From Marinomonas sp. CT5 (GTDB lineage Bacteria; Pseudomonadota; Gammaproteobacteria; Pseudomonadales; Marinomonadaceae): a stretch of DNA of 64,000 bases. The notes below the pieces were generated by a model. The model saw only the letters and a program-made list of their open reading frames with translations, did not search any database and was not told where the DNA came from. Positions 41,050-64,000 of the stretch are shown here, in pieces; the first letter of the stretch is position 1; each line of letters opens with the position of its first letter. The DNA is taken from NCBI RefSeq assembly GCF_018336975.1, contig NZ_CP025572.1:277496-341495 (forward strand). Reading direction: 5' to 3'. A program made the translations under genes and the position numbers.

Positions 41050-41075
41050 AAACGTTCAGAGAGTGTTGTGTGAGA

Positions 41076-42903: not shown

Positions 42904-43176
42904 CTAGCCCCAGCGCATTAGGATGATCATCCAAAATGCACACAGGACGGTTGCCACCGCGATGTTCACATCCGTTAACGCAACGAATGCAAGGTGGATA
43001 AAAGCACTGCTAAGCAGGCCAATGAACAAGCGATCACCACGTGTTGTCGCCAGCGGCAAAAAGCCACGACGCTCCACGCAAGGTGAGATCAGTTGCCATG
43101 TGGTCATGCCGACCAAGATCACGGCAATACCGATAAAAAACAGGGCGGTAGGTAATGTCCAAGACATCCAAGCCAT
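42904..43176 (-). CDS. glpU: DUF2160 small membrane protein of the ABC importer
   Basis: This 90-residue protein has three hydrophobic segments and conserved MAWMSWTLPTALFFIG and VERRGFLPLATTRGDRLFIGLL (in part GFLPLATTRGDRLFIG). It belongs to DUF2160 and is found in the glycerol-type ABC loci between the permease and the binding protein. Its task in transport is not known. It lies 11 bases after the glpQ-type gene. Confidence 0.85.
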   Translation of the reverse strand: MAWMSWTLPTALFFIGIAVILVGMTTWQLISPCVERRGFLPLATTRGDRLFIGLLSSAFIHLAFVALTDVNIAVATVLCAFWMIILMRWG

Positions 43177-43187
43177 AATAATTCTCC

Positions 43188-44081: not shown

Positions 44082-44090
44082 GATCCGCTC

Positions 44091-46104: not shown

Positions 46105-46106
46105 GA

Positions 46107-47195: not shown

Positions 47196-47300
47196 TGTAA
47201 GTACCTTTTTGTTGTTATTGTTTTTAGTGCCAATTCGTTTTAGCTTCTGGAAAGCTCAAAAATGAATGCACAGTAATCTTGTCTGTATGCGCTAAGTACT

Positions 47301-47317
47301 TACAAAAGCCATGCCAA
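47301..47317 (-). promoter_or_regulatory. Sigma-54 (-24/-12) promoter of the glpSTPQUV-type operon
   Basis: On the minus strand the sequence reads TTGGCATG-N4-TTGTA, against the consensus TTGGCACG-N4-TTGCA, with exact spacing. It sits about 106 bases upstream of the glpS start, beside a divergent sigma-54 activator gene. Two mismatches only, so the match is strong. Confidence 0.8.
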
Positions 47318-47417
47318 AATTATTTTTATGTTTTTTATCAATGTTAACGTTTTGAAAAATAAAGATTTTATCGGTTTTTATTAGTATTTTTTATGATTTT
47401 CACTTTCGAAAAAGTAC

Positions 47418-47465
47418 TGTTCACGAGTGTTCAAAGTGTTTACAGTCTTGCAAATACAGTGAACA
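47418..47465. promoter_or_regulatory. Candidate activator-binding region (cluster of TGTTCAC-like half sites)
   Basis: TGTTCAC at 47418, TGTTCAA at 47428, TGTTTAC at 47437 and the inverted GTGAACA at 47459-47465 form a cluster. It lies about 100-165 bases upstream of the -24/-12 promoter, where enhancer sites for sigma-54 activators normally lie. The outermost two are an exact inverted pair. Confidence 0.55.
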
Positions 47466-47510
47466 TTTCATGCACACTCTAGGGCTTTTTCCAGTGTGTT
47501 GGAGTTGGAA

Positions 47511-49505: not shown

Positions 49506-49556
49506 CCGCTCATTCGAGTGGATGGCAATTAAACTCTATTAAGGGCGTTGATATTC

Positions 49557-50066
49557 ATGTTATTGAAAAGTGCGTTAGCCATAGTTTTTGGGTGTGTCTT
49601 ATCTGCTTGTAGTACTTTGTCCGAATCGTCTCATGTCAGTATGCCTTTGTTACACGGCTGGCATGAGGGGAAAGAAGTTCGTTATATTACGACGGATGTG
49701 TCTGATCAGGCCCTAGCAAAAGCCAAACAAGCCAATTATGCACCTCGCTTGCGCGATGCTGTCCCTCGCTATCCAAAACCGCCACAAGTCAAAACAGTAT
49801 TAGAACGCGTCTATGCGTTTCCCAATAAAGAGCAAACTTGGAGCGTGTTTGCTTCTGTTCCAGAGCCATTAGGTTATGAGAGTCAAAACACTCATTACTC
49901 ACCACTTTGGTTGATGTATGTTGTCGTTTGGAAAGATCCAAGCAAGGCAACAGAGTTGACCTCTGAAGAAGCGATTCTTACAGCGGAAGATCAGGGCTTG
50001 GTCACCATCGAAAGAACCAATATCGTGCTTAATTGCCCAGTAATTCCTTTTGCTAAAAAGAAATAA
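49557..50066 (+). CDS. Predicted lipoprotein, unrecognised
   Basis: The 169-residue protein starts at ATG 49557, with AAGGGCG upstream. It has a hydrophobic signal with lipobox LSAC (cysteine near residue 17) and a globular domain rich in tyrosine and proline, with no motif that I recognise. An in-frame TTG at 49548 is less likely. It follows the sigma-54 activator by 51 bases, which could be read-through. A strong bidirectional terminator follows. Function unknown. Confidence 0.75.
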   Translation: MLLKSALAIVFGCVLSACSTLSESSHVSMPLLHGWHEGKEVRYITTDVSDQALAKAKQANYAPRLRDAVPRYPKPPQVKTVLERVYAFPNKEQTWSVFASVPEPLGYESQNTHYSPLWLMYVVVWKDPSKATELTSEEAILTAEDQGLVTIERTNIVLNCPVIPFAKKK

Positions 50067-50190
50067 AAAAAGCGGCGCATAGCTCACATAAAATGCATTT
50101 TGGCGGTTTGGTTTTTTGCGGAGTTTAAAATAGCTGAGATCGATTTTGAATAGCAGAGGTTGAGGTGTTTTTCTATTATTAAGAAGATAA

Positions 50191-50222
50191 AAAAGCACTA
50201 CTTATTTATAAGTAGTGCTTTT
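50191..50222. terminator. Bidirectional terminator
   Basis: AAAAGCACTACTTA (50191-50204) and TAAGTAGTGCTTTT (50209-50222) are perfect 14-base arms with a 4-base loop between convergent genes. Confidence 0.92.
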
Positions 50223-50235
50223 AATAAGCTTTTAA

Positions 50236-50649
50236 TTAAAGCGCGTCTTCTACAGTATCTTGTAGTGCTTTAGCGCGGTCTTCAATTTGGTTTTCTGCAT
50301 TGGCAATTGGTGAATGGTTTAATGTCAAAACACCATTGCTGTAAGAAGAATATTTATTAGCATTGCTGATGTCGCCAACGTTCTGAATAACTACTTTCTT
50401 CAGGTCGTCTTGGATGGCTTCTTGAGAAAAGCTGTCCGCACACATTTTGCTAAAGGCAATAATCATTGGCTCAAAGTAAATTTGAGTCCAAGTTTGGTTG
50501 TATAGGTGAGAGTAGTTGTCAACAGAGATACTATCCCAGTCAATTTCAATCTCAAATTCAAATTTAGCTGCGTCAAACACTTTCTTTTTAAGTGCCTCAA
50601 GATTGTTTTCTTGAAAATCTCTAGCCGCTTTTTTCTCTTTAAGTCCCAT
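50236..50649 (-). CDS. Unrecognised acidic protein (137 aa)
   Basis: The ATG at 50649 is preferred to an in-frame TTG two codons upstream. The soluble acidic protein has an N-terminal helix rich in lysine and glutamate (KEKKAARDFQENNLEALKKK), a segment VFDAAKFEFEIEIDWDSI and a helical C terminus. There is no signal peptide or membrane helix. It lies 50 bases downstream of the 215-residue unknown gene on the same strand, so the two are probably one operon. I do not recognise the family and assign no function. Confidence 0.7.
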   Translation of the reverse strand: MGLKEKKAARDFQENNLEALKKKVFDAAKFEFEIEIDWDSISVDNYSHLYNQTWTQIYFEPMIIAFSKMCADSFSQEAIQDDLKKVVIQNVGDISNANKYSSYSNGVLTLNHSPIANAENQIEDRAKALQDTVEDAL

Positions 50650-50699
50650 GATCAATCCTTATTTTTGAGTTGAAAAGTACAAGTTAAAAAATTGAAAAA

Positions 50700-51347
50700 T
50701 TAGAATGCGTCATTTATTCCATTTTCAATTTTTGTTTGAAGATCAGCGGGTAGCTCTTCTTCAAAATTGAATCTAACCAAAATAGTGGTATTTGTTTTTC
50801 TAAAACGAATGCCATCTCTTGCTTCATTTTTAATATGAAAATCAGTTATTTGGCTAAGGTACTCTTTGCTGAAGTCATCACTGGCGACGTCCATTAGTGT
50901 GTCGCCTAGAGCTTCAAGAATGGCTTTAATTTTGTCGACGTTGGCTGGCTCCACTTCATCGACCGTGAAGTTGAAATCAAGTGAGTGTGTTTTTTGGAGG
51001 GTCGACTTAAGCAGTGTTAAACAGTCTTCAATAGTGTCTGCTTTAAATACGGACACTTGTTTTATGGGCTCTTGACCTAGTAGGAAATGTTCATGTTTTG
51101 CAAAGTCATAAATGGCAATGTTTACAATGCTGTCCGTATCAATAAAAGAGATTTCATGTTCTTTGTCTGTGAGCAAAACAATTTTAAGCTCTGGATCAAA
51201 TTTAACAAAAAAGCCGGAGTAACGATTATTGTATCTATCAGCGATTGTTATATGGAATTCTGTGTCATAGTCAGATTTACTTTGTTGAAATCTTTCTAAT
51301 AACTGTATAGGGGAGGATAAAACGATATTGTTAATATAGCTCTTCAT
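50700..51347 (-). CDS. Unrecognised protein with a possible Sm-like beta-barrel N terminus (215 aa)
   Basis: Translation from the ATG at 51347 gives a soluble, acidic protein. An AAGGA lies about 13 bases upstream, rather far, and an ORF extending to 51380 begins with a non-ATG codon. Residues about 25-75 run as short beta strands (FHITIADRYNNRYSGFFVKF, then IVLLTDKEHEISFIDTDSIV), a pattern that recalls Sm/Hfq-like barrels. This is only pattern similarity. The rest is mixed alpha/beta. It pairs with the 137-residue gene downstream. No family is recognised. Confidence 0.7.
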   Translation of the reverse strand: MKSYINNIVLSSPIQLLERFQQSKSDYDTEFHITIADRYNNRYSGFFVKFDPELKIVLLTDKEHEISFIDTDSIVNIAIYDFAKHEHFLLGQEPIKQVSVFKADTIEDCLTLLKSTLQKTHSLDFNFTVDEVEPANVDKIKAILEALGDTLMDVASDDFSKEYLSQITDFHIKNEARDGIRFRKTNTTILVRFNFEEELPADLQTKIENGINDAF

Positions 51348-51572
51348 AAGTATCCATGTTCCTTGGAAAGGTTTAAGCATTTTTTAAATGCAATGAGCGA
51401 TAAAAAATATAAACGTAATTTGAAATTGCTTGACGGAATTCTACATTTCACACTTTGATAAAACAACACTTGAAATATGCATGAAAACAGCAATTTCGGT
51501 TGCTTTTTTGTATAGATAAAGTGTACAGAGGCACAGTTTGAAAGTATGAAAATTGAGAGTTAGATTCTATTT

Positions 51573-51599
51573 AACAAGGCTAATAGTATTAGCCTTGTT
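51573..51599 (-). terminator. Hairpin after the M42-like peptidase gene
   Basis: AACAAGGCTAA (51573-51583) and TTAGCCTTGTT (51589-51599) form a perfect 11-base hairpin after the minus-strand stop at 51621. No clear T run follows, so it may be a weak terminator. Confidence 0.6.
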
Positions 51600-51620
51600 G
51601 TCTTGTTAGTGTTGAATAAA

Positions 51621-52670
51621 TTAGATATTTGAGACGACTTTTAATATATCAAGAAACGCATCCACAGATTCCACAGCAACAGATTCATGCATTGTATGGT
51701 AACCAATGGTTGGGATTTGAATCGTTGTGCCATCTACTAAGCCATTTGATGCGGCGATAATGCGACCTAGCTCGGTACTACCTAGCGAGCTAGGTGGCAA
51801 ACCTTGCTCAGCACGTTTTGAATTTTCGTTCTCTACATAACGATTCTTGTATAAATAACGGACGTTGTTTTTCTCGCACAGTTCTTCCAGAAGCTTAGTA
51901 CTGTCTTTGTTGAAAGTCGCGTTCGCGTCTTTTTCTCTAAGTATTAGAAGTTGTTCATTAGCGGCATCAATATTTGGAAATGGGCTGGTGTCGACCACAA
52001 ATAGGCGGTTGGTCGAGCCACCAAAGCGACGGAACCATTCAAGCAAATAACGCCAACTTTTTCCGGCCTCTTCTTGGGCGGTAAAAAAAGCAGTGCCTTT
52101 GAAGCCCTGATCAAAAAGATTAACCAATGCCGCGGCTGAAATGACATTATCCAATTGCCCTTCTAAGCGGTTATTGACGATACGTAATTGGTCTTTAAAG
52201 GCAATGGGAGTTCCAGCCACAACGCCTTCTAAACCTTCGGTTTCGAAAATTAAGTTATTACGAAATTCACAAACGTAAGAGCTTTTAATGGTTCCTTTGC
52301 CACGGTAGACGCCAGACCAAGGCTCGTAAGCGTAGATCTCCTCATGGTTGAATCGCTCGGTTACCTTGGTCATCAATTCTTCCGAAACCGAATTGTTCAA
52401 TAAGTCCGTACGGTTTGCCGAAACAAAGGCCGCGTATTGAAATTCATTTGGACCAGTGCAGACTAATCCGTGACGATCAATATGAGCTGAAAACATGGTG
52501 CTAAATGGATCGCTACCTTGAGCTACCAGCAAACCTTCGTACCAAGTAACTTTTGCTCCTCTTTCTTCTAATTCACGCTGTAATACACGGAAAAATGAAT
52601 GTTCTGCTCCTACTACGCTAGGCGCGCGAATAAGCAGTTTGAGCAGATCGATAAAGTCATCACTTGGCAT
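51621..52670 (-). CDS. M42/M20-like metallo-aminopeptidase
   Basis: This 349-residue peptidase is read from the ATG at 52670, with GGAA about 10 bases upstream. The longer ORF (GTG at 52733) lacks a ribosome site. The two-zinc site residues appear as H and D in SAHIDRHGLV, the catalytic glutamates in FFTAQEEAGKSW and the metal aspartate in FVVDTSPFP. The late GYHTMHESVA supplies the final histidine. It probably trims the N-terminal residue of peptides in the cytoplasm. It is a single gene. Confidence 0.88.
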   Translation of the reverse strand: MPSDDFIDLLKLLIRAPSVVGAEHSFFRVLQRELEERGAKVTWYEGLLVAQGSDPFSTMFSAHIDRHGLVCTGPNEFQYAAFVSANRTDLLNNSVSEELMTKVTERFNHEEIYAYEPWSGVYRGKGTIKSSYVCEFRNNLIFETEGLEGVVAGTPIAFKDQLRIVNNRLEGQLDNVISAAALVNLFDQGFKGTAFFTAQEEAGKSWRYLLEWFRRFGGSTNRLFVVDTSPFPNIDAANEQLLILREKDANATFNKDSTKLLEELCEKNNVRYLYKNRYVENENSKRAEQGLPPSSLGSTELGRIIAASNGLVDGTTIQIPTIGYHTMHESVAVESVDAFLDILKVVSNI

Positions 52671-53005
52671 GTAACTAGATTCCAAAAAAAGATAGATCGG
52701 GACCTTGTTTATAAACGTTAATGTGTGATTCACATAATGTTTTTTTATTTATTTTGATGGAGTTAAAGACTTTGGTGGGCAAGCATAAAATCGATTACAA
52801 AACTGAGCTGAAATTTGATGGGGGGTCGTAGTCTGTTTGAGTAACTAGATAATGACCACATGATTTGTGCTGCTTGTATTACATATCGTTGAACTCTAAA
52901 TATCGCTAAGTTATTTGATTGTGTTGCAAATTTGGGGTCGTGCTCTTGGTAAACTTCAGCTACGCTTTAAGACAAGTTCAATGTTGATTTTTAAGGAAGA
53001 AGCAA

Positions 53006-54319
53006 ATGCTATTTGGTAACAACAAACTATTGTCCAGAATTACTGAACTAGAAAAGGAGCTTGCTTCTTTTAAAGAGACACAAGCCGACCTTAGGCAAGA
53101 AATGTTGTATTTTTCGATGACTCCAGAGGGAAAAATATTAGAGGCCAATACGCTCTTTATTAAGTCTGTTGGCTTTGAGCTCACAGAGTTAGTGGGAACA
53201 AATATCAAAGATCTGATACTCGGCAAGTCATTAGAAAAAGATCATTGCAAGAAAATGTTGTCCGCTATTGAGAACAAAAAACACTGGCATGGGGCTTTGC
53301 AAGTTGAAGAGAAACATGGCAAAGAAGTCTGGTACCGAGCGACAATTCAGCCTAAAAAACTCTCTGATGGATCTGTTCAGCTAGAAGTTTACGCCGCGGA
53401 GTTAACCAGAACGATTTCTCAGTCTAGAGAGGTCGAAGATATGCTAGCGGCATTGAATCGTTCGTCAGCGGTCATTGAGTTTAATTTGGACGGAATTATC
53501 TTAAAGGCTAACGATAATTTTTTGAAAGAGATGGGCTACTCAAGAGATCAAATTATTGGAAAGCATCATAGTATGTTTTGTGATGCAAAAGAGACTGAAT
53601 CAGAGGAATATCAACAATTTTGGCAGAGATTGCGCGCAGGAGAATTTGTTTCTGATCGATTCAAACGGATTGATAGTCGAGGGCAAGATGTGTGGCTAGA
53701 AGCCTCCTATAACCCGATTAATGATGAAAGTGGTCAACTCTATAAAGTCGTGAAGTTTGCTACCGTGATTACTGAACAAATGAATCGTGAGTTTGCTATT
53801 TCAGAAACCTCTAAGGTGGCTTATGACGTTTCTAAAAAAAGTGATCAGGATGCGATCCATGGTAAAGAAGTCATCGATTCTACGATTCAAACGATGAATG
53901 AGTTGTCCGCCCAAATGAGCGAAGCCAGCAAAGGTATATTTGAGTTAAATACTCAGTCTATGACCGTGGCCAATTTGGTTGAAAGTATCAGAGGGATTGC
54001 TGATCAAACGAACTTACTGGCACTTAACGCGGCAATAGAAGCGGCCCGAGCTGGGGAGCAAGGTCGGGGTTTTGCTGTGGTGGCGGATGAGGTTCGTCAG
54101 CTTGCTTCCCGTACCAGTACGGCGACAGAAGAAATCATCAATGTGGTGGGGGATAATAAAAAATTGACCGAGCAAGCGGTTGCGCTCATTGAGCAAAGCA
54201 TGCAGAAAGCTCAGCAAGCATTGGATTATTCTACTGAGGCTGGCCAGGCGATGAATAATATTCAGACTGGTGCAAAACAGGTCGTGGATGCTGTCAGTCA
54301 ATTTAACGATAATTTGTGA
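53006..54319 (+). CDS. Soluble PAS-PAS methyl-accepting chemotaxis protein (BdlA-like)
   Basis: The 437-residue protein has an N-terminal coiled coil (10-35), PAS1 (about 35-140), PAS2 (about 145-265) and a short MCP signalling domain. The hairpin tip at about 330-365 is canonical ([31 protein letters not shown]). There are no membrane segments, so it is cytoplasmic. The layout and length match Pseudomonas BdlA (about 417 aa), which controls biofilm dispersal, although aerotaxis-type function is also possible. An AAGGAAG ribosome site supports the start. A strong terminator follows. Confidence 0.93.
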
Positions 54320-54345
54320 TAGTTAGTTAAACATGCCATCCAGAT

Positions 54346-54382
54346 AAATCCCTCTGACTTTTTCTTGTCAGAGGGATTTTTG
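54346..54382 (+). terminator. Terminator after the MCP gene
   Basis: AAATCCCTCTGAC (54346-54358) pairs with GTCAGAGGGATTT (54367-54379), followed by Ts. A degraded relative (ACTCCCT...AGGGAGT) lies at the same distance beyond the end of the full-length radical SAM gene. Confidence 0.9.
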
Positions 54383-54404
54383 TTTTCTAGGTGGGTGAAA
54401 TTGT

Positions 54405-54851
54405 TAGAACAATGCCATCTGATCACCTTCTTTTGGTGGAACCGAAAAGTGGCGACAATCCAAATAGCTCAAGCGATGATTATCTAACCCGTGTTTGCGT
54501 CGTGCGACGTGAAAGCGTTGATTGATTAAGTCCGCGAAGATGCCTTCCCCCGTCATACGCTTGCCAAATCGACTGTCGTAGAGTTTGCCACCGCGCATAT
54601 CCATAATACGCTGCAAAACATGCTCTGCTCGATCTGGGTAATGCTGTTGTAACCAATCGGCAAACAGCGGTGCCACCTCGTGAGGTAAGCGCAACATAAT
54701 ATAATTGACGGATTGTGCGCCAACCTCAGCACAGGCAGCAACGATCTCTTCAAGCTCATTATCATTAATAAAAGGGATTACCGGCGCGACCAGAACCGAC
54801 ACCGGAATGCCTGCTTCTCGTAAGGTTTTAATCACCTGTAAACGTGTTTTT
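54405..54851 (-). pseudogene. 3' fragment of a PA0069-type radical SAM gene
   Basis: This stretch encodes the C-terminal 145 or so residues of the radical SAM protein at 57640-58758. The CxxxCxxC part is absent, so it cannot be catalytic. The two copies align without gaps over 447 bases with about 19 mismatches counted by eye. Most changes are silent; the visible amino acid differences are V/A, C/S and H/N. The homology stops abruptly at 54851, at the edge of the inserted segment. It has no start codon of its own that makes sense. Confidence 0.93.
54405..54851. repeat. Left copy of the 447-base direct repeat bounding the insertion
   Basis: This is the partner of 57641-58087, same orientation, offset exactly 3236 bases, ungapped and about 96 percent identical by eye. 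See the pseudogene entry and findings. Confidence 0.93.
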
Positions 54852-54882
54852 TGAGTAAAAAAGTAGGGTTATTATTTGTTAA

Positions 54883-54903
54883 TTTAGGAAATGATTTGAT
54901 CCA
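54883..54903 (+). repeat. 21-base motif, copy 1 of 3 (upstream of the cupin remnant)
   Basis: The core GGAAATG...GATCCA is shared with copies at 56191-56211 and 56340-56360. All three lie just before gene starts in the inserted segment. It may be an operator or a leftover of duplication. Confidence 0.6.
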
Positions 54904-54959
54904 AAGTATGTGTTCCAAAAAAACGTACATGGATAATATATTTATAAGGAGTTCATTAA

Positions 54960-55450
54960 ATGTATAGCACACTGCAAAAGCATGTTAGCCAGTTTATAAT
55001 GGCCGGAATATTCACTCTTGCGGGCGAATTAGCATATGCTGAGAGCGACTATGCTCCATTCAATTTTCCAGAGATATCTAAAGAGGCTAACAGTCCAATA
55101 ATACTTGGGCCTGCGGGCGAGACTTTCGATTTTATTCGCACGAGCAAGGAGACTTGTGGAAAATATTTGTTTGCTAAGTTGGTTGTACCTCCTCATGTAG
55201 GCCCTCCTCCACATGTTCACCATTGGACGGATGAATGGTTTTATGCTCCAAATGGTGGTTTTGTAATGTTTATGGGGCAGAATCTCTATCCTGATCTTAA
55301 ACTTGCATCAGGAGAGGGGCACCAAAAGATATTCTTAATATAATGAAAATGCGCCCTAAAGAGCTATTCTATGGAAAACGATACATCGTTCATGGATTTG
55401 CTAATGTCTCCCTAGTTGGACAATTACGTACAATAGTTGGTCTTGTTTAA
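54960..55450 (+). pseudogene. Frameshifted cupin-domain protein with signal peptide
   Basis: The gene opens at ATG 54960 after ATAAGGAG with a secretion signal (ending near ELAYAES) and a cupin metal-site segment (PPHVGPPPHVHHWTDEWFY). The reading frame ends at 55343. A second frame continues with KDILNIMKMRPKELFYGKRY and IVHGFANV to a stop at 55448-55450. Adding one A to the AAAA run near 55324-55327 would join the two frames smoothly, so a single-base deletion has broken the gene. The 3' end also seems short for a cupin. It is probably non-functional. Confidence 0.75.
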
Positions 55451-55517
55451 TTGCCATGTAAGCATCTTGAGTTTATCATTCTTGATTTGGATGAATTCGT
55501 ATCCTAATATACTAGAT

Positions 55518-56141
55518 ATGATTAATTCAACGATAAAGCATTGCAGCAAGGCTGGCGAGCGTGGTCGCCCAAGAGAATTTGATATTGATACGGCTTTAGA
55601 TCGTGCAATACTGTATTTCAGAGAGCATGGTTACAACGGCGTATCAATTTCAGATCTTTCAAAGGCCTTACAACTGTCGGCTGGTAGTATATACAAAGCG
55701 TTCTTTAGTAAGCATGCTTTGTTTTCTGCAGCTTTGGATCGTTACATGATGCTTCGGGGACAAAGAATCTCGGAAATTATTGGAAGTAATTCTTCTGGCC
55801 GAGAGAAACTTCGAAGTCTCTTGGTCTTTTATGCAGAATCATCTCATGCTTCTGAAGGAAAGTATGGGTGTTTAGTTGTCCTTAGTGCTGTTGAATTATC
55901 ATGTACTGATGAATCGATTGCATCTAAGGTGACAGCAGCACTCAATGGTAACGAAAGTCGTCTTGTGAGAATTATCCAGGAAGGTCAGGTTGACGGTTCA
56001 ATAGTTCAGACGATTGATCCAGAGGTAACAGCCAAACTCATGTTGGCGTTGGTTCAGGGGATGCGTGTCCTTGGAAAAATAGGGCAGGAACGTGAAGCTA
56101 TGATGGCTGTGATAAATACTGCGATGAAAATACTCGATTAA
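55518..56141 (+). CDS. TetR-family transcriptional regulator
   Basis: The regulator (207 aa from the ATG at 55518; 55491 is an alternative) has an N-terminal TetR HTH (about 15-65; GRPREFDIDTALDRAI, GYNGVSISDLSKALQLSAGSIYKAF in part) and a C-terminal helical ligand domain. It resembles the AcrR/YcdC group. It precedes an MFS transporter gene, so it is probably its repressor. The 3' end of the gene is repeated in tandem just downstream. No strong ribosome site is seen for either start. Confidence 0.9.
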   Translation: MINSTIKHCSKAGERGRPREFDIDTALDRAILYFREHGYNGVSISDLSKALQLSAGSIYKAFFSKHALFSAALDRYMMLRGQRISEIIGSNSSGREKLRSLLVFYAESSHASEGKYGCLVVLSAVELSCTDESIASKVTAALNGNESRLVRIIQEGQVDGSIVQTIDPEVTAKLMLALVQGMRVLGKIGQEREAMMAVINTAMKILD

Positions 56142-56150
56142 GGCTACTGG

Positions 56151-56185
56151 TACCCAGAGTTGACGTCAGCTCTGGGTATATTTTA
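56151..56185 (+). terminator. Terminator of the TetR gene
   Basis: TACCCAGAG (56151-56159) pairs with CTCTGGGTA (56170-56178), followed by TATTTT. The counterpart in unit 2 (56300-56334) has mismatches in the left arm. Confidence 0.75.
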
Positions 56186-56190
56186 AACTA

Positions 56191-56211
56191 TTTTGGAAAT
56201 GATATAATCCA
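56191..56211 (+). repeat. 21-base motif, copy 2 of 3
   Basis: This is the most diverged copy, inside unit 1 of the tandem duplication, upstream of the dead MFS start. Confidence 0.55.
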
Positions 56212-56339
56212 ATATTAACTGGTTGATAGAAGCTGGCTCACTAACCTGTGACCAGACACGACAAATTCAACGATGAAAATACTCGATTGAGGCTACTGGT
56301 ACGCAGGGTTGATGCCAGCTCTGGGTATATTTTTAATTA

Positions 56340-56360
56340 TTTAGGAAATGGATTGATCCA
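56340..56360 (+). repeat. 21-base motif, copy 3 of 3 (upstream of the MFS gene)
   Basis: It ends two bases before the MFS start codon and is nearly identical to copy 1 at 54883-54903. Confidence 0.6.
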
Positions 56361-56362
56361 AT

Positions 56363-57574
56363 ATGAATGAATCTATAGAAACAAACTCACTAGCCAGTGA
56401 GCAGGCACCTACAATTACAAGCTGGCTTACTCTGTTATTAGCATGTGCGTGTGGCTTGATTGCAGCCAATATTTATTATGCGCAGCCGCTAATAGGCCCA
56501 ATTAGCTCTCAATTGGAGCTTTCTGAGCATGCAGCTGGTTTGATTGTAACTCTTACCCAGCTTGGCTACGGACTTGGTTTGCTTCTAGTCGTTCCTTTAG
56601 GAGATCTATTTGAAAATAAACGTTTGGCAATATCTATTTTAGGTATTGGAGCTGTCGGCTTGCTGGTATCTGGCTTATCTGGTTCTGTTGGTCCGTTCTT
56701 GGTCGCGTCTTTTTTAGTAGGTTTAGGGTCAGTGACAGTACAAATTTTAGTTCCTTATGCTGCACATTTATCCCCTGAAGCGATACGTGGGCGTGTTGTT
56801 GGTAATGTTATGAGCGGGCTGATGTTGGGAATTATGTTGGCTAGACCTGTATCTAGCCTTATAACGTATTTCGAGAGTTGGCGAGCTGTATTTTTTATGT
56901 CATGCATTTTAATGTTTGTGTTGGCAATTGTGCTGAGTTTTGTTTTACCGGCAAGGCCTGTTAAAGCTCAGTTAAAATACTCCCAGATGTTGAAGTCTAT
57001 GGTGGAGCTTGTGAAAAATACACCAATGCTACGTCGTAGAGCGCTTTATCATGGTTGTATGTTTGGGGTATTTAGTTTGTTTTGGACAACAACACCATTG
57101 TTATTAGCTGGACCAGAGTTTGGCTTGAGCCAAAAAGGGATAGCTCTATTCGCCTTGGCTGGTGTTGCAGGGGCTGTTGCAGCTCCTATTGCAGGCCGAA
57201 TTGCAGATCGAGGATGGATTAAACTCGCGACTGGGGCTGCAATGATTTTGGCAATAATAGCTTTTGCGATTACTTTTATTGCCCCACTTGGTTCGAGTCT
57301 TTCATTAGCCATATTTGTTGTCGCAGGAATTGTACTGGACTTCGCAGTATCTGCTAATTTAGTACTTGGACAGCGAGTGATTTTTGCATTGGCTCCTGAG
57401 GTTCGAGGTCGCCTAAATGGATTATATATGACGACTTTCTTTTGCTTTGGGGCCATCGGTTCAGCCCTTGGTGGATGGTTGTTTGCTAGCTATGGTTGGT
57501 TTTCGGTCTCGATCACAGGAGTAATTTGTGTTTTCAGTGCTTTAGTGTACTTTCTATTTGAGCCCTCAAATTAA
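56363..57574 (+). CDS. Major facilitator superfamily efflux transporter
   Basis: This 403-residue inner-membrane protein has 12 predicted helices. The MFS loop motif is recognisable at PLGDLFENKRL, with IYYAQPLIGPISSQL near the N terminus and a second-half GRIADRGWIKLATG. It is in the class of drug or sugar efflux proteins. The TetR gene upstream suggests substrate-induced expression. It carries its start in unit 2 of the tandem duplication. The ribosome site is poor. The exported substrate is unknown. Confidence 0.9.
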   Translation: MNESIETNSLASEQAPTITSWLTLLLACACGLIAANIYYAQPLIGPISSQLELSEHAAGLIVTLTQLGYGLGLLLVVPLGDLFENKRLAISILGIGAVGLLVSGLSGSVGPFLVASFLVGLGSVTVQILVPYAAHLSPEAIRGRVVGNVMSGLMLGIMLARPVSSLITYFESWRAVFFMSCILMFVLAIVLSFVLPARPVKAQLKYSQMLKSMVELVKNTPMLRRRALYHGCMFGVFSLFWTTTPLLLAGPEFGLSQKGIALFALAGVAGAVAAPIAGRIADRGWIKLATGAAMILAIIAFAITFIAPLGSSLSLAIFVVAGIVLDFAVSANLVLGQRVIFALAPEVRGRLNGLYMTTFFCFGAIGSALGGWLFASYGWFSVSITGVICVFSALVYFLFEPSN

Positions 57575-57639
57575 AATAGGCTTAGGTGATACTCCCTTTG
57601 ATAACATAAATAGCAGAGGGAGTTACGTTATCTAAGCAA

Positions 57640-58758
57640 CTAAAACAATGCCATCTGATCACCTTCTTTTGGTGGAACCGAAAAGTGGCGACAATCCAAA
57701 TAGCTCAAGCGATGATTATCTAGCCCATGTTTGCGTCGTGCGACGTTAAAGCGTTGATTGATTAAGTCCGCGAAGATGCCTTCCCCCGTCATACGCTTGC
57801 CAAATCGACTGTCGTAGAGTTTGCCACCGCGCATATCCATAATACGCTGCAAAACATGCTCTGCTCGATCTGGGTAATGCTGTTGTAACCAATCGGCAAA
57901 CAACGGTGCCACCTCGTGAGGCAAACGCAACATGATGTAATTGACGGATTGTGCGCCAACTTCCGCACTGGCAGCAACGATCTCTTCAAGCTCATTGTCA
58001 TTAATAAAAGGAATCACTGGTGCGGCCAAAACCGACACCGGAATGCCTGCTTCTCGTAAGGTTTTAATCACCTGTAAACGTGTTTTTCCCGATGCGGTTC
58101 TGGGCTCCAAAATACGCTTTAAATCGTTATTGAGTGTGGTCACACTGATCGCTACATGAATCAGCTTTTTTTCTGCCATTTGAGTGAGCAGATCAATGTC
58201 TCTGAGTATCAGCGTGCTTTTGGTAATCAGCGAAATAGGCTGGTTGTGTGCCAAAGCGATTGTTAATAATTGCCGAGTGATCTTGAGTTGTTTTTCAATG
58301 GGTTGATAAGCATCGGTATTGATGCCTAATGCAATGGGTTCACAGCGGTATTTAGGATGCGCCAACTCTTCTTCCAATAAAAACGGAGCGTTCGTTTTAG
58401 CAACCAGCTTGGTTTCAAAATCCAACCCTGGTGATAAATCCAAATAGGCATGAGTGGGTCGAGCAAAACAATAGACACAGCCATGCTCACAGCCTTTATA
58501 GGGATTCACAGACAGGCGAAAAGGAATGTCAGGGGAGGAATTGCGGCTGATGATGCTTTTGGCGCGTTCGTAGCGAACCTCTGTCTTAGGGGACGACGTT
58601 TCCAGCAAGGCAATGGCTTCGTCGTTTTCATCTACTTCAACCAACGTAATAGCAAAGCGCCCCGCCATCTTATTGGTGGTACCACGTCCCTTGATGGGAT
58701 GATTGAAAGGAGATGGCTCACCGTTTTGATCGCTGTTATTGGTAAAAGAAGCCGACAT
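57640..58758 (-). CDS. PA0069-family radical SAM protein (SplB-like)
   Basis: The 372-residue protein has the cluster-binding cysteines in NPYKGCEHGCVYCFARPTH (CxxxCxxC) and the wider SplB-like family features (ITKSTLILRDIDLL, ISVTTLNNDLKRILEPRT). The C-terminal part is duplicated at 54405-54851. I chose the ATG at 58758; an upstream extension would translate through the SOS box and is implausible. No ribosome site is visible, so the message may be leaderless. The family resembles spore photoproduct lyase, and the SOS box points to a role in the DNA-damage response. The reaction is unknown. Confidence 0.9.
   Translation of the reverse strand: MSASFTNNSDQNGEPSPFNHPIKGRGTTNKMAGRFAITLVEVDENDEAIALLETSSPKTEVRYERAKSIISRNSSPDIPFRLSVNPYKGCEHGCVYCFARPTHAYLDLSPGLDFETKLVAKTNAPFLLEEELAHPKYRCEPIALGINTDAYQPIEKQLKITRQLLTIALAHNQPISLITKSTLILRDIDLLTQMAEKKLIHVAISVTTLNNDLKRILEPRTASGKTRLQVIKTLREAGIPVSVLAAPVIPFINDNELEEIVAASAEVGAQSVNYIMLRLPHEVAPLFADWLQQHYPDRAEHVLQRIMDMRGGKLYDSRFGKRMTGEGIFADLINQRFNVARRKHGLDNHRLSYLDCRHFSVPPKEGDQMALF
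57641..58087. repeat. Right copy of the 447-base direct repeat bounding the insertion
   Basis: This is the 3' part of the intact radical SAM gene and the partner of 54405-54851. Homology ends at 58087 where the intact gene continues. Confidence 0.93.
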
Positions 58759-58763
58759 AAAAA

Positions 58764-58801
58764 CACCCAAAATACTGTATATATAAACAGTATTTTGGGT
58801 G
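58764..58801 (-). promoter_or_regulatory. LexA/SOS box within a perfect 15-base inverted repeat
   Basis: The core CTGTATATATAAACAG (58775-58790) is an exact CTGT-N8-ACAG LexA site with an AT-only centre. It lies inside perfect 15-base arms (58764-58778 and 58787-58801). It is centred about 24 bases upstream of the radical SAM start codon, so LexA would block its promoter. Confidence 0.85.
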
Positions 58802-58923
58802 CTGGAATGCAATAAAGCAAGCTTGTTATTGTGGTTTTTTAAATAGTCTAACAGCATGTGTTGAGATCTGTTTATTCACAGGTACACTCGATTGAATGAT
58901 CGATGGGTGTCTAGGAGAGTTAC

Positions 58924-59685
58924 TTGTTGTTTCAAAACCATCATTTACCAAATCGTGTCGTGGCTTACGCGCAAGACTATGAACACGGTAAATTCGAACC
59001 TTATCATGCTCATAACTGCGCTCAGATGATTCACACGCTAACTGGTGTGATACGTGTGGAGACTCGTTTGGGTAGTTGGGTGATTCCTCCAAACCGAGGG
59101 ATGTGGATTCCAGCCGGAGTGGAGCACAGTCTTTCTATGACTGGTTTGGTCAAAGTCAGAACCTTGTTTATTGATCCTCTCGCGCGGGCTGATCTGCCTC
59201 ATGATTGCTCTGTCATTGATGTCTCTATGCTGTTAAAAGCACTGATTATTGAAGCGTTAGAACTTCCTGATGAAATTGTGTCAGGGGGTCGTGATGAGCG
59301 AATTGTTGAGCTGATTTTGGACGAATTAAGGAGTTTATCGAACGTGTCTTTTTATGTCCCATTGCCGAGTTCCGATGCTTTGGTTTCTTTGTGTGAGCAC
59401 ATAAGTCGACGTATTGCTCATGATTGGACAAATGCCGATGGTGCTCATATTTTAGGGATCAGTGAGCGCTCTGTTACTCGAAAGTTCCAGCAAGAAATGT
59501 CGTTAACATTTGCTGAATGGTTGCGGCGGAAGCGTTTATTATTGGCTTTGGAGTATCTTGCTAGCGGCAAAAGTGTCTTAGATACTGCGATTCTGATTGG
59601 TTACGATAGTCCTAGTGCTTTTAGTGCGATGTTTAAAAGTCGAGTCGGCGTATCACCGACTGACTATTTACTGCAATCACAATAG
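58924..59685 (+). CDS. AraC-family transcriptional regulator
   Basis: The 253-residue regulator has an N-terminal cupin sensor (about 15-90; FEPYHAHNCAQMIHTLTGVI in part, MWIPAGVEHSL) and a C-terminal double HTH (about 155-250; LGISERSVTRKFQQEM and YDSPSAFSAMFKSRVGVSP). I accept the TTG start at 58924 because AGGAGAG lies 5-7 bases upstream. It is divergent from the radical SAM gene and convergent with leuA. Its targets are not indicated. Confidence 0.9.
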   Translation: MLFQNHHLPNRVVAYAQDYEHGKFEPYHAHNCAQMIHTLTGVIRVETRLGSWVIPPNRGMWIPAGVEHSLSMTGLVKVRTLFIDPLARADLPHDCSVIDVSMLLKALIIEALELPDEIVSGGRDERIVELILDELRSLSNVSFYVPLPSSDALVSLCEHISRRIAHDWTNADGAHILGISERSVTRKFQQEMSLTFAEWLRRKRLLLALEYLASGKSVLDTAILIGYDSPSAFSAMFKSRVGVSPTDYLLQSQ

Positions 59686-59707
59686 GCGTAATGAAAATTA
59701 CCGCCTA
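59683..59707. terminator. Possible shared terminator of the AraC and leuA genes
   Basis: TAGGCG (59683-59688) pairs with CGCCTA (59702-59707), with TAAT/ATTA inside and a bulged C, between the two convergent stops. There is no long T run. Confidence 0.45.
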
Positions 59708-59708
59708 G

Positions 59709-61385
59709 CTATGCTTCTTTGTATAAAGAATGGCAAGCGTTGATTAAGGCTTGTAGCGATGCTTTAGTCGAGTCTTCATCAATGGCTACCCCAAAGCTTG
59801 AGATAGTTTGATGAGATTCAATTTGAACATAGCTGACCGCTTTGCTTTTTGTCTGTTGTCCTAAGGTGTGTTCATGAAAGTCACTGATGTTTATCTGCCA
59901 GTTAAAACGTTTTCTTAACGCGTCAAGCATGGCTGATAACAATCCTTTACCTTCGCCAGTCAGTTGCCATGTTTTTTCCTGATAGCGTAATGTAGCGCGA
60001 ATCTCTTGTAATCCGTTTGAGCTATGGCTGCGATAATCCAGTAATGTCATTTGGCCTTTATCATCTGAATTCAATTTGTAGGAGTCTCTAAATAAACGCC
60101 AAACATCGGCTAGAGGCATCTCATTTCCTGTTTTATCGGTGTAATTTTTGACTCTCTTGCTAAAATCTATTTGTAATTTACGTGGTAAAAACAGTCCGTG
60201 ATTTTCCTGTAACAACCAAGCGGCTCCACTTTTTCCAGACTGGCTATTTACTCGAATGACCTCTTCATAAGTACAGCCAATATCTTTCGGGTCTAATGGT
60301 AAATAAGGAATTTGCCAAATCATCGACGACGTTGATTTTTGTGCGGCAAAGCCTTTTTTGATCGCATCTTGGTGTGAGCCTGAAAACGCGGTAAAAGCCA
60401 ATGAGCCAGCATAAGGATGTCGAGGATGAACAGGAAGCTCATTGCATTCTTCGACCAACTCTACCGTGCGGCGCATGTCTGAAAAATCCAAGTTAGGATG
60501 AACGCCTTGGCTATAAAGATTCATTGCCAAGGTAACGAGATCGACATTTCCTGTCCGTTCCCCATTACCAAAGAGGCAACCTTCCACTCTCTGCGCGCCA
60601 GCGAGTATTGCCATTTCCGCTGTGGCAACGCCAGTCCCTCTGTCATTGTGAGGATGAACACTGATGGTTATGTTCTCTAAGGAAGAAAAAGACGTTATAA
60701 AGTGCTCAATCTGATCAGCAAATACATTGGGGGTGTTCACTTCCACTGTCGTTGGCAAATTCAAAATCATCGGACGTTCTAGACTCGGCTGCCATGTTTT
60801 TGCCGCTGCTTCACAGACCTCTAAGGCAAAGTCAGGTTCGGTAAAGCAAAAGGTTTCTGGCGAATATTGAAGCGTCCATTCTGTCTCTGGATATTGTTCA
60901 CATAATTGGCGAATGTGTTTAACGCCTTGAACGGCTAATTCAAGGGTTGCTGGTTTGTCTTGGCAAAAAACAATTTCCCGAAATACCGGCGCAGTGGCGT
61001 TGTAAATATGCACTATGGCTTTTTTAGCGCCAACGAGAGACTGTATGGTGCGTTCAATTAAATCCACACGAGATTGTGTCATCACCTGAATCGTCACATC
61101 ATCAGGAATATGCTTACCTTCGATAAGCAAGCGAACAAAATCAAAGTCCGTTTGTGACGCAGCAGGAAAAGCGACTTCAATTTCTTTAAAACCACACTCA
61201 ATTAAATGCTTAAAGAAAGCCATTTTCTTCGTGTGATCCATAGGATTTGCAAGCGCTTGATTGCCGTCACGTAAGTCAGTTGAGCACCAACGAGGCGGAG
61301 CTTTCAACTGCTTTGACGGCCAAGTGCGGGCAGGAAAATCGATAATTTTAGCTGGCTGATATTTTATTGAGGGTTGGGTTAGCAT
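59709..61385 (-). CDS. leuA: 2-isopropylmalate synthase (LeuA type 2)
   Basis: The 558-residue enzyme joins acetyl-CoA and 2-oxoisovalerate, the first step of leucine synthesis. The N-terminal TIM barrel has RWCSTDLRDGNQALANPM and the metal-site histidines in SVHPHNDRGTGVA. The C-terminal regulatory domain (about 430-558) holds the leucine-feedback site. The start motif and length match the yeast/actinobacterial-like type 2 class, not the 523-residue E. coli form. No other leu genes are adjacent. A hairpin hides part of its ribosome site. Confidence 0.96.
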   Translation of the reverse strand: MLTQPSIKYQPAKIIDFPARTWPSKQLKAPPRWCSTDLRDGNQALANPMDHTKKMAFFKHLIECGFKEIEVAFPAASQTDFDFVRLLIEGKHIPDDVTIQVMTQSRVDLIERTIQSLVGAKKAIVHIYNATAPVFREIVFCQDKPATLELAVQGVKHIRQLCEQYPETEWTLQYSPETFCFTEPDFALEVCEAAAKTWQPSLERPMILNLPTTVEVNTPNVFADQIEHFITSFSSLENITISVHPHNDRGTGVATAEMAILAGAQRVEGCLFGNGERTGNVDLVTLAMNLYSQGVHPNLDFSDMRRTVELVEECNELPVHPRHPYAGSLAFTAFSGSHQDAIKKGFAAQKSTSSMIWQIPYLPLDPKDIGCTYEEVIRVNSQSGKSGAAWLLQENHGLFLPRKLQIDFSKRVKNYTDKTGNEMPLADVWRLFRDSYKLNSDDKGQMTLLDYRSHSSNGLQEIRATLRYQEKTWQLTGEGKGLLSAMLDALRKRFNWQINISDFHEHTLGQQTKSKAVSYVQIESHQTISSFGVAIDEDSTKASLQALINACHSLYKEA

Positions 61386-61391
61386 GATGTT

Positions 61392-61433
61392 TTCTCTTTA
61401 GCATTAGAAATCGAATCCTTATGCTAAAGAGAA
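61392..61433. promoter_or_regulatory. Hairpin in the leuA leader
   Basis: Perfect 13-base arms at 61392-61404 and 61421-61433 flank a 16-base loop. On the leuA message the second arm contains the AAAGAGAA ribosome site, just 6 bases before the ATG. Read on the plus strand the stem is followed by GTTTTTT, so it also has the shape of a terminator for transcription entering from leuA antisense. A role in control is inferred. Confidence 0.55.
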
Positions 61434-61505
61434 GTTTTTTGGCTGTCCGAGCGGCCTTTGACAACTATCGTCGCAAAATGGACAGAGCCATCTAGAAAAA
61501 GCAGA

Positions 61506-62564
61506 TTATATCGAGACGTTCCGCTTTTGGCGCATTAGAAAGACGAAGGCGATGCCGCCGACTAGGCCGGTAAGTATGCCGATTGGCATGTCTTCGGGAG
61601 GCATGATGATTCTGGAGGCGATGTCGGCTGCGACCAGAAACAAGGCACCGACTAATGCCGATAAAGGTAAGACTTTGCGATAATCGCCACCCACTAATAG
61701 ACGGACAATGTGTGGCACCATCAGTCCGACAAAGCCGATGACACCAGAAAAAGCCACCGCCGCGCCAGTCAGTAGGGCGCAGACCACAATGACGATCAGG
61801 CGGAAGCGTTCGACTGGAACGCCTAAGGTGCTGGCGCTTTCATCACCCAGTGTCATGGCATTCAAATAACGGGCGTTGTAAATCAGATAGCCGGAGCCAA
61901 GCACCAGTGCCACCAATGGAAACCAGAGTTGTCCCCATTGAGCCAATCCCAAACCACCAAGCATCCAAAAAATCACCGTATGAGAAGAGCGGTGATCCCC
62001 TGTAAAAATGAAAAGGTTGCCTAAGGCGGTCAGCACAAAGGCCACGGCGACACCCGCTAGAATCAAGCGTCCTGCACTGTGAGCGGAGGAAAAGTTGGCT
62101 ACCGCCAAGACGAGAAACATGGCTAACAAGGCACCAAGAAAGGCAAATACGGGAACGGTTACCACGCCTAAAATCATGCCGGTGTGGAGCAAAGCAATAA
62201 TCGCCCCTAACGCGGCACCAGAGGATACACCGAGTAAATGTGGGTCGGCCAAAGGGTTGCGGGTGACAGATTGCAGCGCGGCACCCACAATCGCTAAAGC
62301 GGCGCCCACCATGGCGGCAAGCAAAGTGCGTGGTAGGCGGACAGCCCAGATAATGTTCTCGCGTCCCATCGACCAACTGGGGGTAATATTAGTGATTGAT
62401 AATTTATGACCGATTACACTCCACACGGTGGACTGGCTGATGGAAACAGAGCCTACACCGATCGCGACCCCCATCAATAAAACCAACATTAGGCTTAATA
62501 AAATAAGCAATTTGGCTAAGGGGACGCGGCTCATGATGGTGAGCTTTTTGCTGGCTAGCTTCAT
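61506..62564 (-). CDS. FecCD-family ABC permease (metal-chelate/cobalamin importer)
   Basis: This inner-membrane protein of 352 aa has about ten helices and family motifs RLPRTLLAAMVGAALAIVGAALQ (in part RLPRTLLAAMVGAAL), NPLADPHLLGVSSGAALGA and GVIGFVGLMVPHIVRLLVG. It forms the channel for an iron-siderophore or B12 importer. Its start overlaps the stop of the binding-protein gene by 4 bases. Confidence 0.95.
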   Translation of the reverse strand: MKLASKKLTIMSRVPLAKLLILLSLMLVLLMGVAIGVGSVSISQSTVWSVIGHKLSITNITPSWSMGRENIIWAVRLPRTLLAAMVGAALAIVGAALQSVTRNPLADPHLLGVSSGAALGAIIALLHTGMILGVVTVPVFAFLGALLAMFLVLAVANFSSAHSAGRLILAGVAVAFVLTALGNLFIFTGDHRSSHTVIFWMLGGLGLAQWGQLWFPLVALVLGSGYLIYNARYLNAMTLGDESASTLGVPVERFRLIVIVVCALLTGAAVAFSGVIGFVGLMVPHIVRLLVGGDYRKVLPLSALVGALFLVAADIASRIIMPPEDMPIGILTGLVGGIAFVFLMRQKRNVSI

Positions 62565-63544
62565 GACTTGGTTCTAAATGCCTCGGCTAAGCGTTTGATT
62601 GCATTAATATTTCGCGGACCAGGTGTGGCTTCGACGTATTCCAATACCACAAAGTGATTATGTTTGACGGCTGGAATGTTTTGGAATGCTGGATTACTGC
62701 GTAAGAAATTGATTTTTTGTTCAGCCGTCACATCGCTATAATTAACGATAATGATCCACTCAGGATTACGGTCTATGACGGCTTCCCAGCCAATTTGCGT
62801 CCAGCTTTTTTGCACGTCATCGACGATGTTTTTGCCGCCCGCGGCTTCGATCAATGCGGTTGGCATGCCGAAGCGGCCAGAGGTGAAGGGTTGTTCTTCG
62901 CCGGAATCGTAAACAAAGACCTTTGGAGCGGTTTTTAGTGGCGCTAGATTGGCTTGGAAAGTAGCGAGATCTTTTTGATAGCCTTTTACCAGACGTTGGG
63001 CTTGTTCTTCTTTGCCAAAGATACGGCCTAGGTTGAGTAAATCCACATACAGGTCATCCATGGACACTTTTGCTTTGTCCATAATGTGGATGCAGCTTTC
63101 GGTTAACTCATAGACCTTGATACCCAGTGGAGCCAAGGTATCAGGTGTCACGCCGCCACCGACGCGCATGCCATAGTTCCAGCCAGCAAAGTAAAAGTCC
63201 GCATCGGCCCCTAATAGCACTTCTTTGCTTGGGTATTTAGCGGATAATTCGGTTAATTCGCCGATGCCATTGCGCAGTGTCGGATCCAGTGTTTTCCAGC
63301 CTGAAACGCCAGTAAATCCAGCCATGTGATCTTGCAAGCCAAGCGCCAACATCATTTCGGTTAAGTTTACGTCATTGGAGACGGCGGCTTTTGGCGCGTG
63401 ATCAAAGGTGACTTGTCGATCGCAGCTTTGTACCGTTACAGGATAGCCAGAGGCGCTGGCTAAACCTGTGTGTAACATGCCAAATAATGCGCCGCTGATA
63501 AGTAATGAGGTTCGCTTGATGGTTGTTTTGACGTTCGCTGTCAT
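62561..63544 (-). CDS. Periplasmic metal-chelate (siderophore/B12-type) binding protein
   Basis: The 327-residue protein has a signal peptide (ending near GLASAS) and the helical-backbone binding-protein fold of the FecB/BtuF class (DRQVTFDHAPKAAVSNDVNL in part, FTSGRFGMPTALIEAAGG). It hands an iron chelate, heme or cobalamin-like ligand to the FecCD permease. It lies 12 bases after the ATPase gene. The ligand is not determined by sequence. Confidence 0.92.
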   Translation of the reverse strand: MTANVKTTIKRTSLLISGALFGMLHTGLASASGYPVTVQSCDRQVTFDHAPKAAVSNDVNLTEMMLALGLQDHMAGFTGVSGWKTLDPTLRNGIGELTELSAKYPSKEVLLGADADFYFAGWNYGMRVGGGVTPDTLAPLGIKVYELTESCIHIMDKAKVSMDDLYVDLLNLGRIFGKEEQAQRLVKGYQKDLATFQANLAPLKTAPKVFVYDSGEEQPFTSGRFGMPTALIEAAGGKNIVDDVQKSWTQIGWEAVIDRNPEWIIIVNYSDVTAEQKINFLRSNPAFQNIPAVKHNHFVVLEYVEATPGPRNINAIKRLAEAFRTKS

Positions 63545-63556
63545 GAATGAGTCCGG

Positions 63557-64000
63557 TTAATCATTAATATAAAAAGAGAATCTTGGTCGTTGTGTGATGG
63601 GGTGTTCATCAATAATGGTTTCTACATCAAACACGTGTTTTATCCGCTGCTTAGTAAAAACCTCATTTGGCGGTGCACAGGCTTGCATTTCACCCTCATT
63701 CATCACTAACACTCGGTCAGCGTAAGCCGAGGCGAGGGCTAAATCGTGCAAAGAAACGATTAAGGTGCAAGGCAGTTTTGCCAACAGAGCCAAAACATCG
63801 AGCTGGTGGCGAATGTCTAAATGATTCGTTGGCTCATCTAGAATCAGTACATCGGGACGCTGTGCGAGCGCGCGGGCAATCATCACCCGCTGGCGCTCTC
63901 CACCTGATAGTGAATCGAAAGAGCGGTCGGCTAAATGCGCCACATCCAGCAAAGTCAGTGCGCTATAAACAATTTGTGAATCTTCTTGAGAGCGGCCCCA
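63557..64000 (-). CDS. ABC transporter ATP-binding protein of the metal-chelate importer (partial)
   Basis: This is the C-terminal 147 residues of an ATPase whose reading frame is open to the end of the window. The signature [14 protein letters not shown], Walker [14 protein letters not shown] and the H-loop SLHDLALA are present; Walker A lies beyond 64000. It resembles FecE/BtuD. It is the first of three genes, ATPase-binding protein-permease, all tightly packed. Confidence 0.93.

What the first reader, a model, noticed from the sequence alone, without database searches (positions are those of the whole stretch)
54405..58087. Accessory segment bounded by two homologous 3' ends of a radical SAM gene
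A segment of about 2.8 kb with a cupin remnant, a TetR gene and an MFS gene lies between two 447-base direct copies of the end of a PA0069-type gene. The gene stays intact on one side and is only a 3' fragment on the other. This is the product expected if a DNA circle carrying the fragment recombined once with the chromosomal gene, or if the segment was taken up with flanking homology. No integrase or transposase is seen. The gene end could be a recurrent site for cargo exchange.
Basis: partly seen in the sequence, partly recalled or inferred. Interest (0 to 1): 0.75.

Follow-up and report, generated by a model that had tools for sequence, protein, structure and literature searches.

The report
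Foreign genes beside a displaced gene end
A marine bacterium has taken up a small, decaying set of foreign transport and regulator genes next to one of its own genes, leaving the old tail of that gene behind as a relic, most likely by ordinary recombination rather than by a dedicated mobile element.

Summary
A 447-base direct repeat (54405-54851 and 57641-58087, 95.7% identical, no gaps) brackets 2,789 bases with a broken cupin gene, a TetR gene and an MFS gene. The right copy ends an intact PA0069-family radical SAM gene; the left copy is an orphan 3' end beside a chemoreceptor gene. The host is a Marinomonas. Ten relatives have the empty site. TetR has no match (E<=1e-20) in the other 47 genus genomes searched. 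Related operons lie on Halomonas and Pantoea plasmids; the Pantoea one has two FAD monooxygenase genes that are missing here. M. pontica has a different (arsenic) cargo in the same architecture at the same gene end, read from two overlapping contigs. With the nearest relative as outgroup, all 13 changes on the fragment are synonymous, so the ends diverged as working alleles and the truncation is recent. Fragment boundaries differ between the two cases; no integrase, transposase or tRNA was found. Best reading: uptake of a relative's DNA, homologous on one side, illegitimate on the other, as proposed for orphan effector and Rhs gene ends. A circle with a single crossover gives the same product and is not excluded. 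New member of a known kind.

The parts
54404..54851 (-). orphan 3' fragment of the PA0069-family radical SAM gene (gene nt 771-1218), next to the chemoreceptor gene
   Evidence: 95.75% identical to the intact gene's end over 447 bases; 0 of 13 changes assigned to it are non-synonymous
54847..54852 (.). left junction in a run of T; fits an illegitimate joint (inference)
   Evidence: identity to the intact gene stops inside this run: six T here, five T then C in the intact gene
54883..54904 (+). operator-like imperfect palindrome before the cupin gene
   Evidence: same motif at 56191 (3 mismatches), 56340 (2), weaker at 55487 (- strand, 5); two weak counterparts (5 mismatches) before TetR and MFS on the Halomonas plasmid
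54960..55411 (+). broken cupin gene: 127-aa open frame, then a continuation in another frame, then no further match
   Evidence: 56% and 45% identity to two stretches of a Pantoea protein in two frames
55437..56141 (+). TetR-family regulator
   Evidence: PF00440 and PF16925; 67% to Halomonas sp. PA16-9 plasmid
56111..56408 (+). 149-base tandem duplication: TetR end, hairpin, operator-like site, MFS start
   Evidence: (79%), sequence
56363..57574 (+). MFS transporter
   Evidence: PF07690; 72% to Halomonas sp. PA16-9 plasmid
57640..58857 (-). intact PA0069-family radical SAM gene (open frame; probable start 58758)
   Evidence: NF033668 490.7 bits
57640..58087 (-). 3' end of the intact gene, second copy of the repeat
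58775..58790 (.). LexA-like box upstream of the radical SAM gene
   Evidence: CTGTN8ACAG near the gene start in 17 of 22 named relatives; the only such site in this window
53006..54319 (+). chemoreceptor gene (MCP), neighbour of the radical SAM 3' end in the empty site
   Evidence: adjacent to the gene in 10 relatives

Best explanation
An ancestor carried one radical SAM gene followed by the chemoreceptor gene. DNA from a close relative, in which the TetR/MFS operon already lay just downstream of that relative's radical SAM gene, entered the cell. One side recombined homologously within the radical SAM gene, keeping it whole. The other side was joined illegitimately in an A/T run at gene nt ~771 of the resident copy. 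The resident 3' end was pushed aside and remains as the relic next to its native neighbour. Shown: empty sites, two diverged allelic ends, a fragment without amino-acid changes of its own, cargo foreign to the genus genomes searched, no recombinase found. Inferred: direction of transfer, linear DNA, RecA, and that the donor already carried the linkage.
For: Empty site: 9 of 22 named loci and 9 of 24 genus loci, 10 distinct genomes. TetR absent from the other 47 genus genomes at E<=1e-20; MFS at most 38% there. The two ends are sisters (98/99), next to UCMA 3892 with weaker support (85/75). Of 20 differences 17 are synonymous; with UCMA 3892 as outgroup 13 fall on the fragment (stop codon base included), none non-synonymous, P 3e-9 to 8e-8 under neutral decay. 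The junction lies in a T run. M. pontica repeats the plan with another cargo; its fragment against its intact gene: 11 synonymous and 1 non-synonymous (nt 1109-1218), 19 and 7 (nt 605-737). Fragment boundaries differ (nt 771 here, about 468 in M. pontica). A ComEC-like protein is present, weak evidence because 10 of 14 control genomes, E. coli among them, score too.
Against: No genome with the same cargo beside a single intact gene was found, so the supposed donor is unseen. The bases shared at the joint are only a homopolymer. The literature says such recombination generally deletes recipient DNA of a size like the insert; no such deletion is visible here. Differences between the copies are clustered (15 of 20 in 127 bases), so gene conversion may blur the history. 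The intact gene, not the fragment, carries the 3 amino-acid changes. M. pontica rests on two contigs that overlap by 243 bases. Competence is not shown.
Confidence: 0.5

Rival explanations
1. Circle plus single crossover: a circle bearing the cargo and a partial radical SAM gene, formed by excision or by end-joining of incoming linear DNA, recombined once with the resident gene.
For: Gives exactly this product, with the illegitimate joint as the ring closure. In E. coli, partly degraded linear DNA that was ligated and integrated by single crossover was about 10 times more frequent than homology-facilitated illegitimate recombination (PMC3240628, passages). In M. polaris the arsenic cargo sits elsewhere together with its radical SAM piece.
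Against: No replication or mobilisation gene among the segment's ORFs; no circle seen. A long-lived partial gene on a circle should collect amino-acid changes, and the fragment has none of its own.
Confidence: 0.25
2. Two full-length radical SAM genes once flanked the cargo (uptake between homologous ends, or duplication) and a later deletion removed the 5' part of the left copy and trimmed the cargo.
For: The cargo seems to have suffered deletion (the Pantoea operon has two extra genes), and the M. pontica fragment shows internal deletions at short repeats. Synonymous-only divergence of the fragment also fits two working genes.
Against: No genome with two full-length copies in the searches of 48 genus genomes.
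Confidence: 0.15
3. Remnant of an integrative element that replaces the 3' end of its target gene, as recalled for e14 in icd; the integrase has since been lost.
For: An intact gene with a displaced 3' end is the hallmark; the last 58 bases of the repeat at the boundary are identical.
Against: No recombinase among the segment's ORFs, no tRNA, no Rfam match; fragment boundaries differ between the window and M. pontica. In the held flanks of the 80 named loci blastn found further copies of the gene's own sequence of at most 38 bases (12 loci) and tblastx weak ones in 7 loci, not followed up; so no second instance of such an element was seen, though many flanks are short.
Confidence: 0.07
4. In-place tandem duplication of the gene end with later neutral decay of the fragment.
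For: The copies are each other's nearest relatives.
Against: 0 of 13 non-synonymous changes on the fragment; does not explain the foreign cargo.
Confidence: 0.03

Closest known systems
Homology-facilitated illegitimate recombination (Acinetobacter, Pseudomonas stutzeri, pneumococcus; conjugation in E. coli; PMC3240628, passages)
   Same: Homologous on one side, illegitimate on the other; short shared bases at the joint in most published cases
   Different: Here inferred from sequence; RecA need and transfer route untested; a 447-base resident end is kept and no deletion of insert size is visible
Displaced T6SS effector/immunity modules and Rhs orphan 3' ends (PMC5361080, passages)
   Same: New DNA anchored by homology comes in, the old gene end is left orphaned downstream; no specific integration site
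   Different: The anchor is a radical SAM gene with a LexA-like box whose kind of product is unchanged; cargo is cupin/TetR/MFS or arsenic genes, not effector-immunity pairs
Integrative elements that replace the 3' end of a protein gene (e14 in icd; recalled, no paper opened)
   Same: Gene kept whole, displaced 3' end on the far side
   Different: No integrase found, no fixed core position

Membership tests
Product of homology-facilitated illegitimate recombination | one junction continuous by homology | tested here: met
   intact gene aligns end to end with relatives (1218 of 1218 bases to UCMA 3892)
Product of homology-facilitated illegitimate recombination | other junction illegitimate, in most published cases with 3-10 shared bases | tested here: inconclusive
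   T-run junction; the donor side of the joint is unknown
Product of homology-facilitated illegitimate recombination | deletion of recipient DNA near the joint, generally of insert size | tested here: inconclusive
   no such deletion visible against the empty sites; the 5' part of the gene is present once, so some may have been replaced
Product of homology-facilitated illegitimate recombination | RecA dependence | not testable with these tools
   needs experiment
Displaced orphan 3' end (T6SS/Rhs type) | alleles from different lineages, not duplicates | tested here: met
   0 of 13 non-synonymous on the fragment
Displaced orphan 3' end (T6SS/Rhs type) | effector-immunity cargo | tested here: not met
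   cupin/TetR/MFS
Integrase-borne island with 3'-end replacement | integrase gene | tested here: not met
   none among the segment's ORFs of 80 aa or more
Integrase-borne island with 3'-end replacement | same core position in independent insertions | tested here: not met
   nt 771 here, about 468 in M. pontica
Transposon | transposase | tested here: not met
   none among the segment's ORFs
Transposon | terminal inverted repeats | tested here: inconclusive
   no pair of 20 bases or more at the segment ends; shorter ones were not searched
PA0069 radical SAM family | NCBIfam NF033668 above cut-off | tested here: met
   490.7 against 360 bits

The most novel reading that the evidence does not exclude
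The 3' end of this radical SAM gene serves as an integrase-free docking site in Marinomonas: cargo framed by two gene ends can leave by RecA as a circle that carries a gene end and re-enter any genome with the gene by one crossover, so that different cargos travel with the same homology tag. The arsenic cargo of M. polaris, which lies elsewhere but still carries its radical SAM piece, would be a stray copy.
Probability: 0.1. Interest if true: 0.7.

Novelty: new member of a known kind. Interest (0 to 1): 0.42.

Why it matters
It gives two natural cases, with different cargo and different fragment boundaries, in which a chromosomal gene seems to have anchored the uptake of foreign genes and stayed whole while its old end was left behind. 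The substitution pattern of the orphan end separates merged alleles from local duplication, a test that could be applied genome-wide to count such events where no mobile element is seen.

Tried and rejected
Integrase or transposon origin: no recombinase among the segment's listed ORFs, no tRNA at 45000-64000, no Rfam match at 50000-62000; boundaries not fixed. Phage origin: no phage record matches; in IMG/VR one radical SAM relative at 32% and no MFS relative. A plasmid carrying gene end plus cargo: none of the 14 plasmid records that matched the 4,454-base query covers 80% of it; the best, Halomonas, covers 37%. Exact donor: not found. MFS: 50% in 1 other of 369 genomes of the class (E<=1e-100), 59% in 3 others of 390 of the order (E<=1e-130), none at E<=1e-140 in 46 genomes of that family (that limit also drops the 59% hits). 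Deciding which flank is donor: identity to UCMA 3892 is 93% or more in 8 of 10 one-kb bins from 41001 to 51000 and 94-95% from 59001 to 62000, but 86-87% over the peptidase bins, 74% over the chemoreceptor, 85-86% at 62001-64000 and about 77-88% at 1-10000; the chemoreceptor varies widely in the genus, so this does not decide. The three-gene set beside the M. polaris fragment gave no Pfam, NCBIfam, PADLOC or PHROG hit. Papers: none holds both PA0069 and LexA, none the four terms; 5 hold Marinomonas, genomic island and homologous recombination (listing only, none opened); hold the e14/icd terms (listing only). This is no wide search for prior reports of the locus.
Full report
What is there. The repeat is 447 bases, ungapped, with 19 mismatches (54405-54851 and 57641-58087); the last base of the stop codon adds a twentieth difference (which used 54404-54850 against 57640-58086). 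The right copy ends an intact gene that passes the NCBIfam cut-off for the PA0069 radical SAM family. The left copy is only that gene's 3' end. The 2,789 bases between the 447-base copies (54852-57640) hold a broken cupin, a TetR and an MFS gene. The stretch matches its own genome once. The relatives named place the host in Marinomonas.

Empty site. Of 22 named loci examined (L032-L053, two of them Vibrio), 9 have the radical SAM gene followed directly by the chemoreceptor gene in convergent orientation. Of 24 loci from the genus search (L002-L025), 9 have it. Matched by coordinates these are 10 distinct genomes. Of those 24, one is the window, one is M. pontica, and 13 have no such chemoreceptor next to the gene. 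The protein search matched 25 of 48 genomes, one of them (G010) only with 5' remnants.

Cargo. TetR matches none of the other 47 genus genomes at E<=1e-20 and MFS reaches at most 38% identity there. On a 1.8-Mb plasmid of Halomonas sp. PA16-9 the same pair lies side by side at 67% and 72%. On plasmid pJZ29-02 of Pantoea sp. JZ29, typed as conjugative, the order is cupin-like protein, FAD monooxygenase, FAD monooxygenase, TetR, MFS (PF01494 in both monooxygenases, a sub-threshold Cupin_2 hit in the first). The window has the cupin start in two frames, no match to the two monooxygenases at E below 0.1, then TetR and MFS. So the cargo looks like a decayed version of such an operon; loss here rather than gain in Pantoea is inference. 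A 22-base imperfect palindrome stands before the cupin and the MFS genes, with a weaker one before TetR, and two weak counterparts lie on the Halomonas plasmid: a likely TetR operator set (inference).

The two gene ends. In a tree of 13 rows the two copies are sisters (98/99), with UCMA 3892 next (85/75, not starred). Seventeen of 20 differences are synonymous against about 22-28% expected without selection (P 4e-9 to 2.4e-7). Taking UCMA 3892 as outgroup, 13 changes fall on the fragment (one of them TAG to TAA) and 7 on the intact gene; the fragment has 0 non-synonymous, the intact gene 3 (read, probabilities). At those 3 sites all 10 close relatives agree with the fragment, so the zero does not depend on the outgroup. 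The fragment's sequence thus evolved inside a working gene until recently. Against a simple history, the differences are clustered: 15 of 20 in 127 bases (P about 0.0006) and a 155-base stretch without any (P about 0.003), which suggests gene conversion or a mosaic.

Recurrence. A DNA search of 48 genomes (only the 8 best candidates per genome were scored) gave radical SAM pieces of over 100 bases apart from the main gene in three: this one, G025 and G027. G027 (M. pontica by coordinates) has the intact gene followed by ArsJ, GAPDH, an arsenite-permease-like gene and ArsC (the ArsJ name rests on NF033734 for the M. polaris protein; the permease on an SBF hit; GAPDH and ArsC are named by recall). 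On a second contig that overlaps the first by 243 identical bases lies an eroded radical SAM fragment, nt 468-501, 605-737 and about 1108-1218, followed by a hairpin and the chemoreceptor gene, there split in two open frames. Its breaks fall at short repeats or T runs (by eye). Its differences from the intact gene are again mostly synonymous (11 to 1; 19 to 7). The first count printed for nt 1108-1218 was out of register and was redone. G025 (M. polaris) has an empty site at the normal locus but carries the arsenic genes with the same eroded fragment elsewhere, so cargo and gene piece appear to have moved together at least once. In the held flanks of the 80 named loci blastn saw further copies of the gene's sequence of at most 38 bases, and tblastx weak hits in 7 loci that I did not follow; M. 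pontica is missed there because its fragment is on another contig. The recurrence is 2 cargos in 12 genomes with this locus. The neighbouring intervals also vary: LeuA/AraC present or absent upstream, extra genes between the chemoreceptor and the peptidase, a doubled chemoreceptor in M. rhizomae. So the region is plastic and the gene end is not proved to be special.

Mechanism. No integrase, transposase, tRNA or Rfam match was found, and the fragment boundaries differ between the two cases, which speaks against a site-specific element. What remains is homology-driven uptake with one illegitimate joint. The literature describes homologous recombination at one end and illegitimate at the other, with 3-10 shared bases in most cases and generally a deletion of insert size; in the E. 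coli conjugation study 3 of 4 sequenced joints had no shared bases (PMC3240628, passages). It is proposed for displaced effector genes in Vibrio and for orphan Rhs 3' ends (PMC5361080, passages), and for variable segments of E. coli (PMC2884548, passages). A ring-closed linear fragment with a single crossover gives the same product and was about ten times commoner in that E. coli study. Merodiploid formation by transformation is a further known route to gene duplication (PMC3784515, abstract and outline).

Verdict. A true accessory insertion with a displaced gene end, a new member of a known kind, made more interesting by a second cargo in a related species and by a clean substitution test against local duplication.

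Noticed in passing
window 58775-58790: LexA-like box inside an imperfect 38-base palindrome upstream of the radical SAM gene; CTGTN8ACAG near the gene start in 17 of 22 named relatives, both Vibrio included (one of the five misses has its upstream cut off). Suggests SOS control of this gene.
   Followed up: partly
window 56111-56408: 149-base tandem duplication that doubles the TetR/MFS intergenic region with its operator-like site; the first copy of the MFS start has decayed.
   Followed up: partly
L131:14367-18954: M. polaris: three overlapping genes (701, 688, 140 aa) beside the arsenic cargo with no Pfam, NCBIfam, PADLOC or PHROG match.
   Followed up: partly
L034:11278-17204: M. rhizomae: two chemoreceptor copies (80% identical) frame an 858-aa gene at the same locus, another cargo between homologous ends.
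   Followed up: no
window 51001-54400: Identity to the nearest relative is 86-87% over the peptidase bins and 74% over the chemoreceptor, against 93% or more in 8 of 10 one-kb bins at 41001-51000; an imported tract here or in the relative.
   Followed up: partly
window 57747, 57969, 58025: The intact radical SAM copy has 3 amino-acid changes at sites where all 10 close relatives and the fragment agree in the base.
   Followed up: no
L135:8552-8882: G010 keeps only 5' remnants of the radical SAM gene.
   Followed up: no
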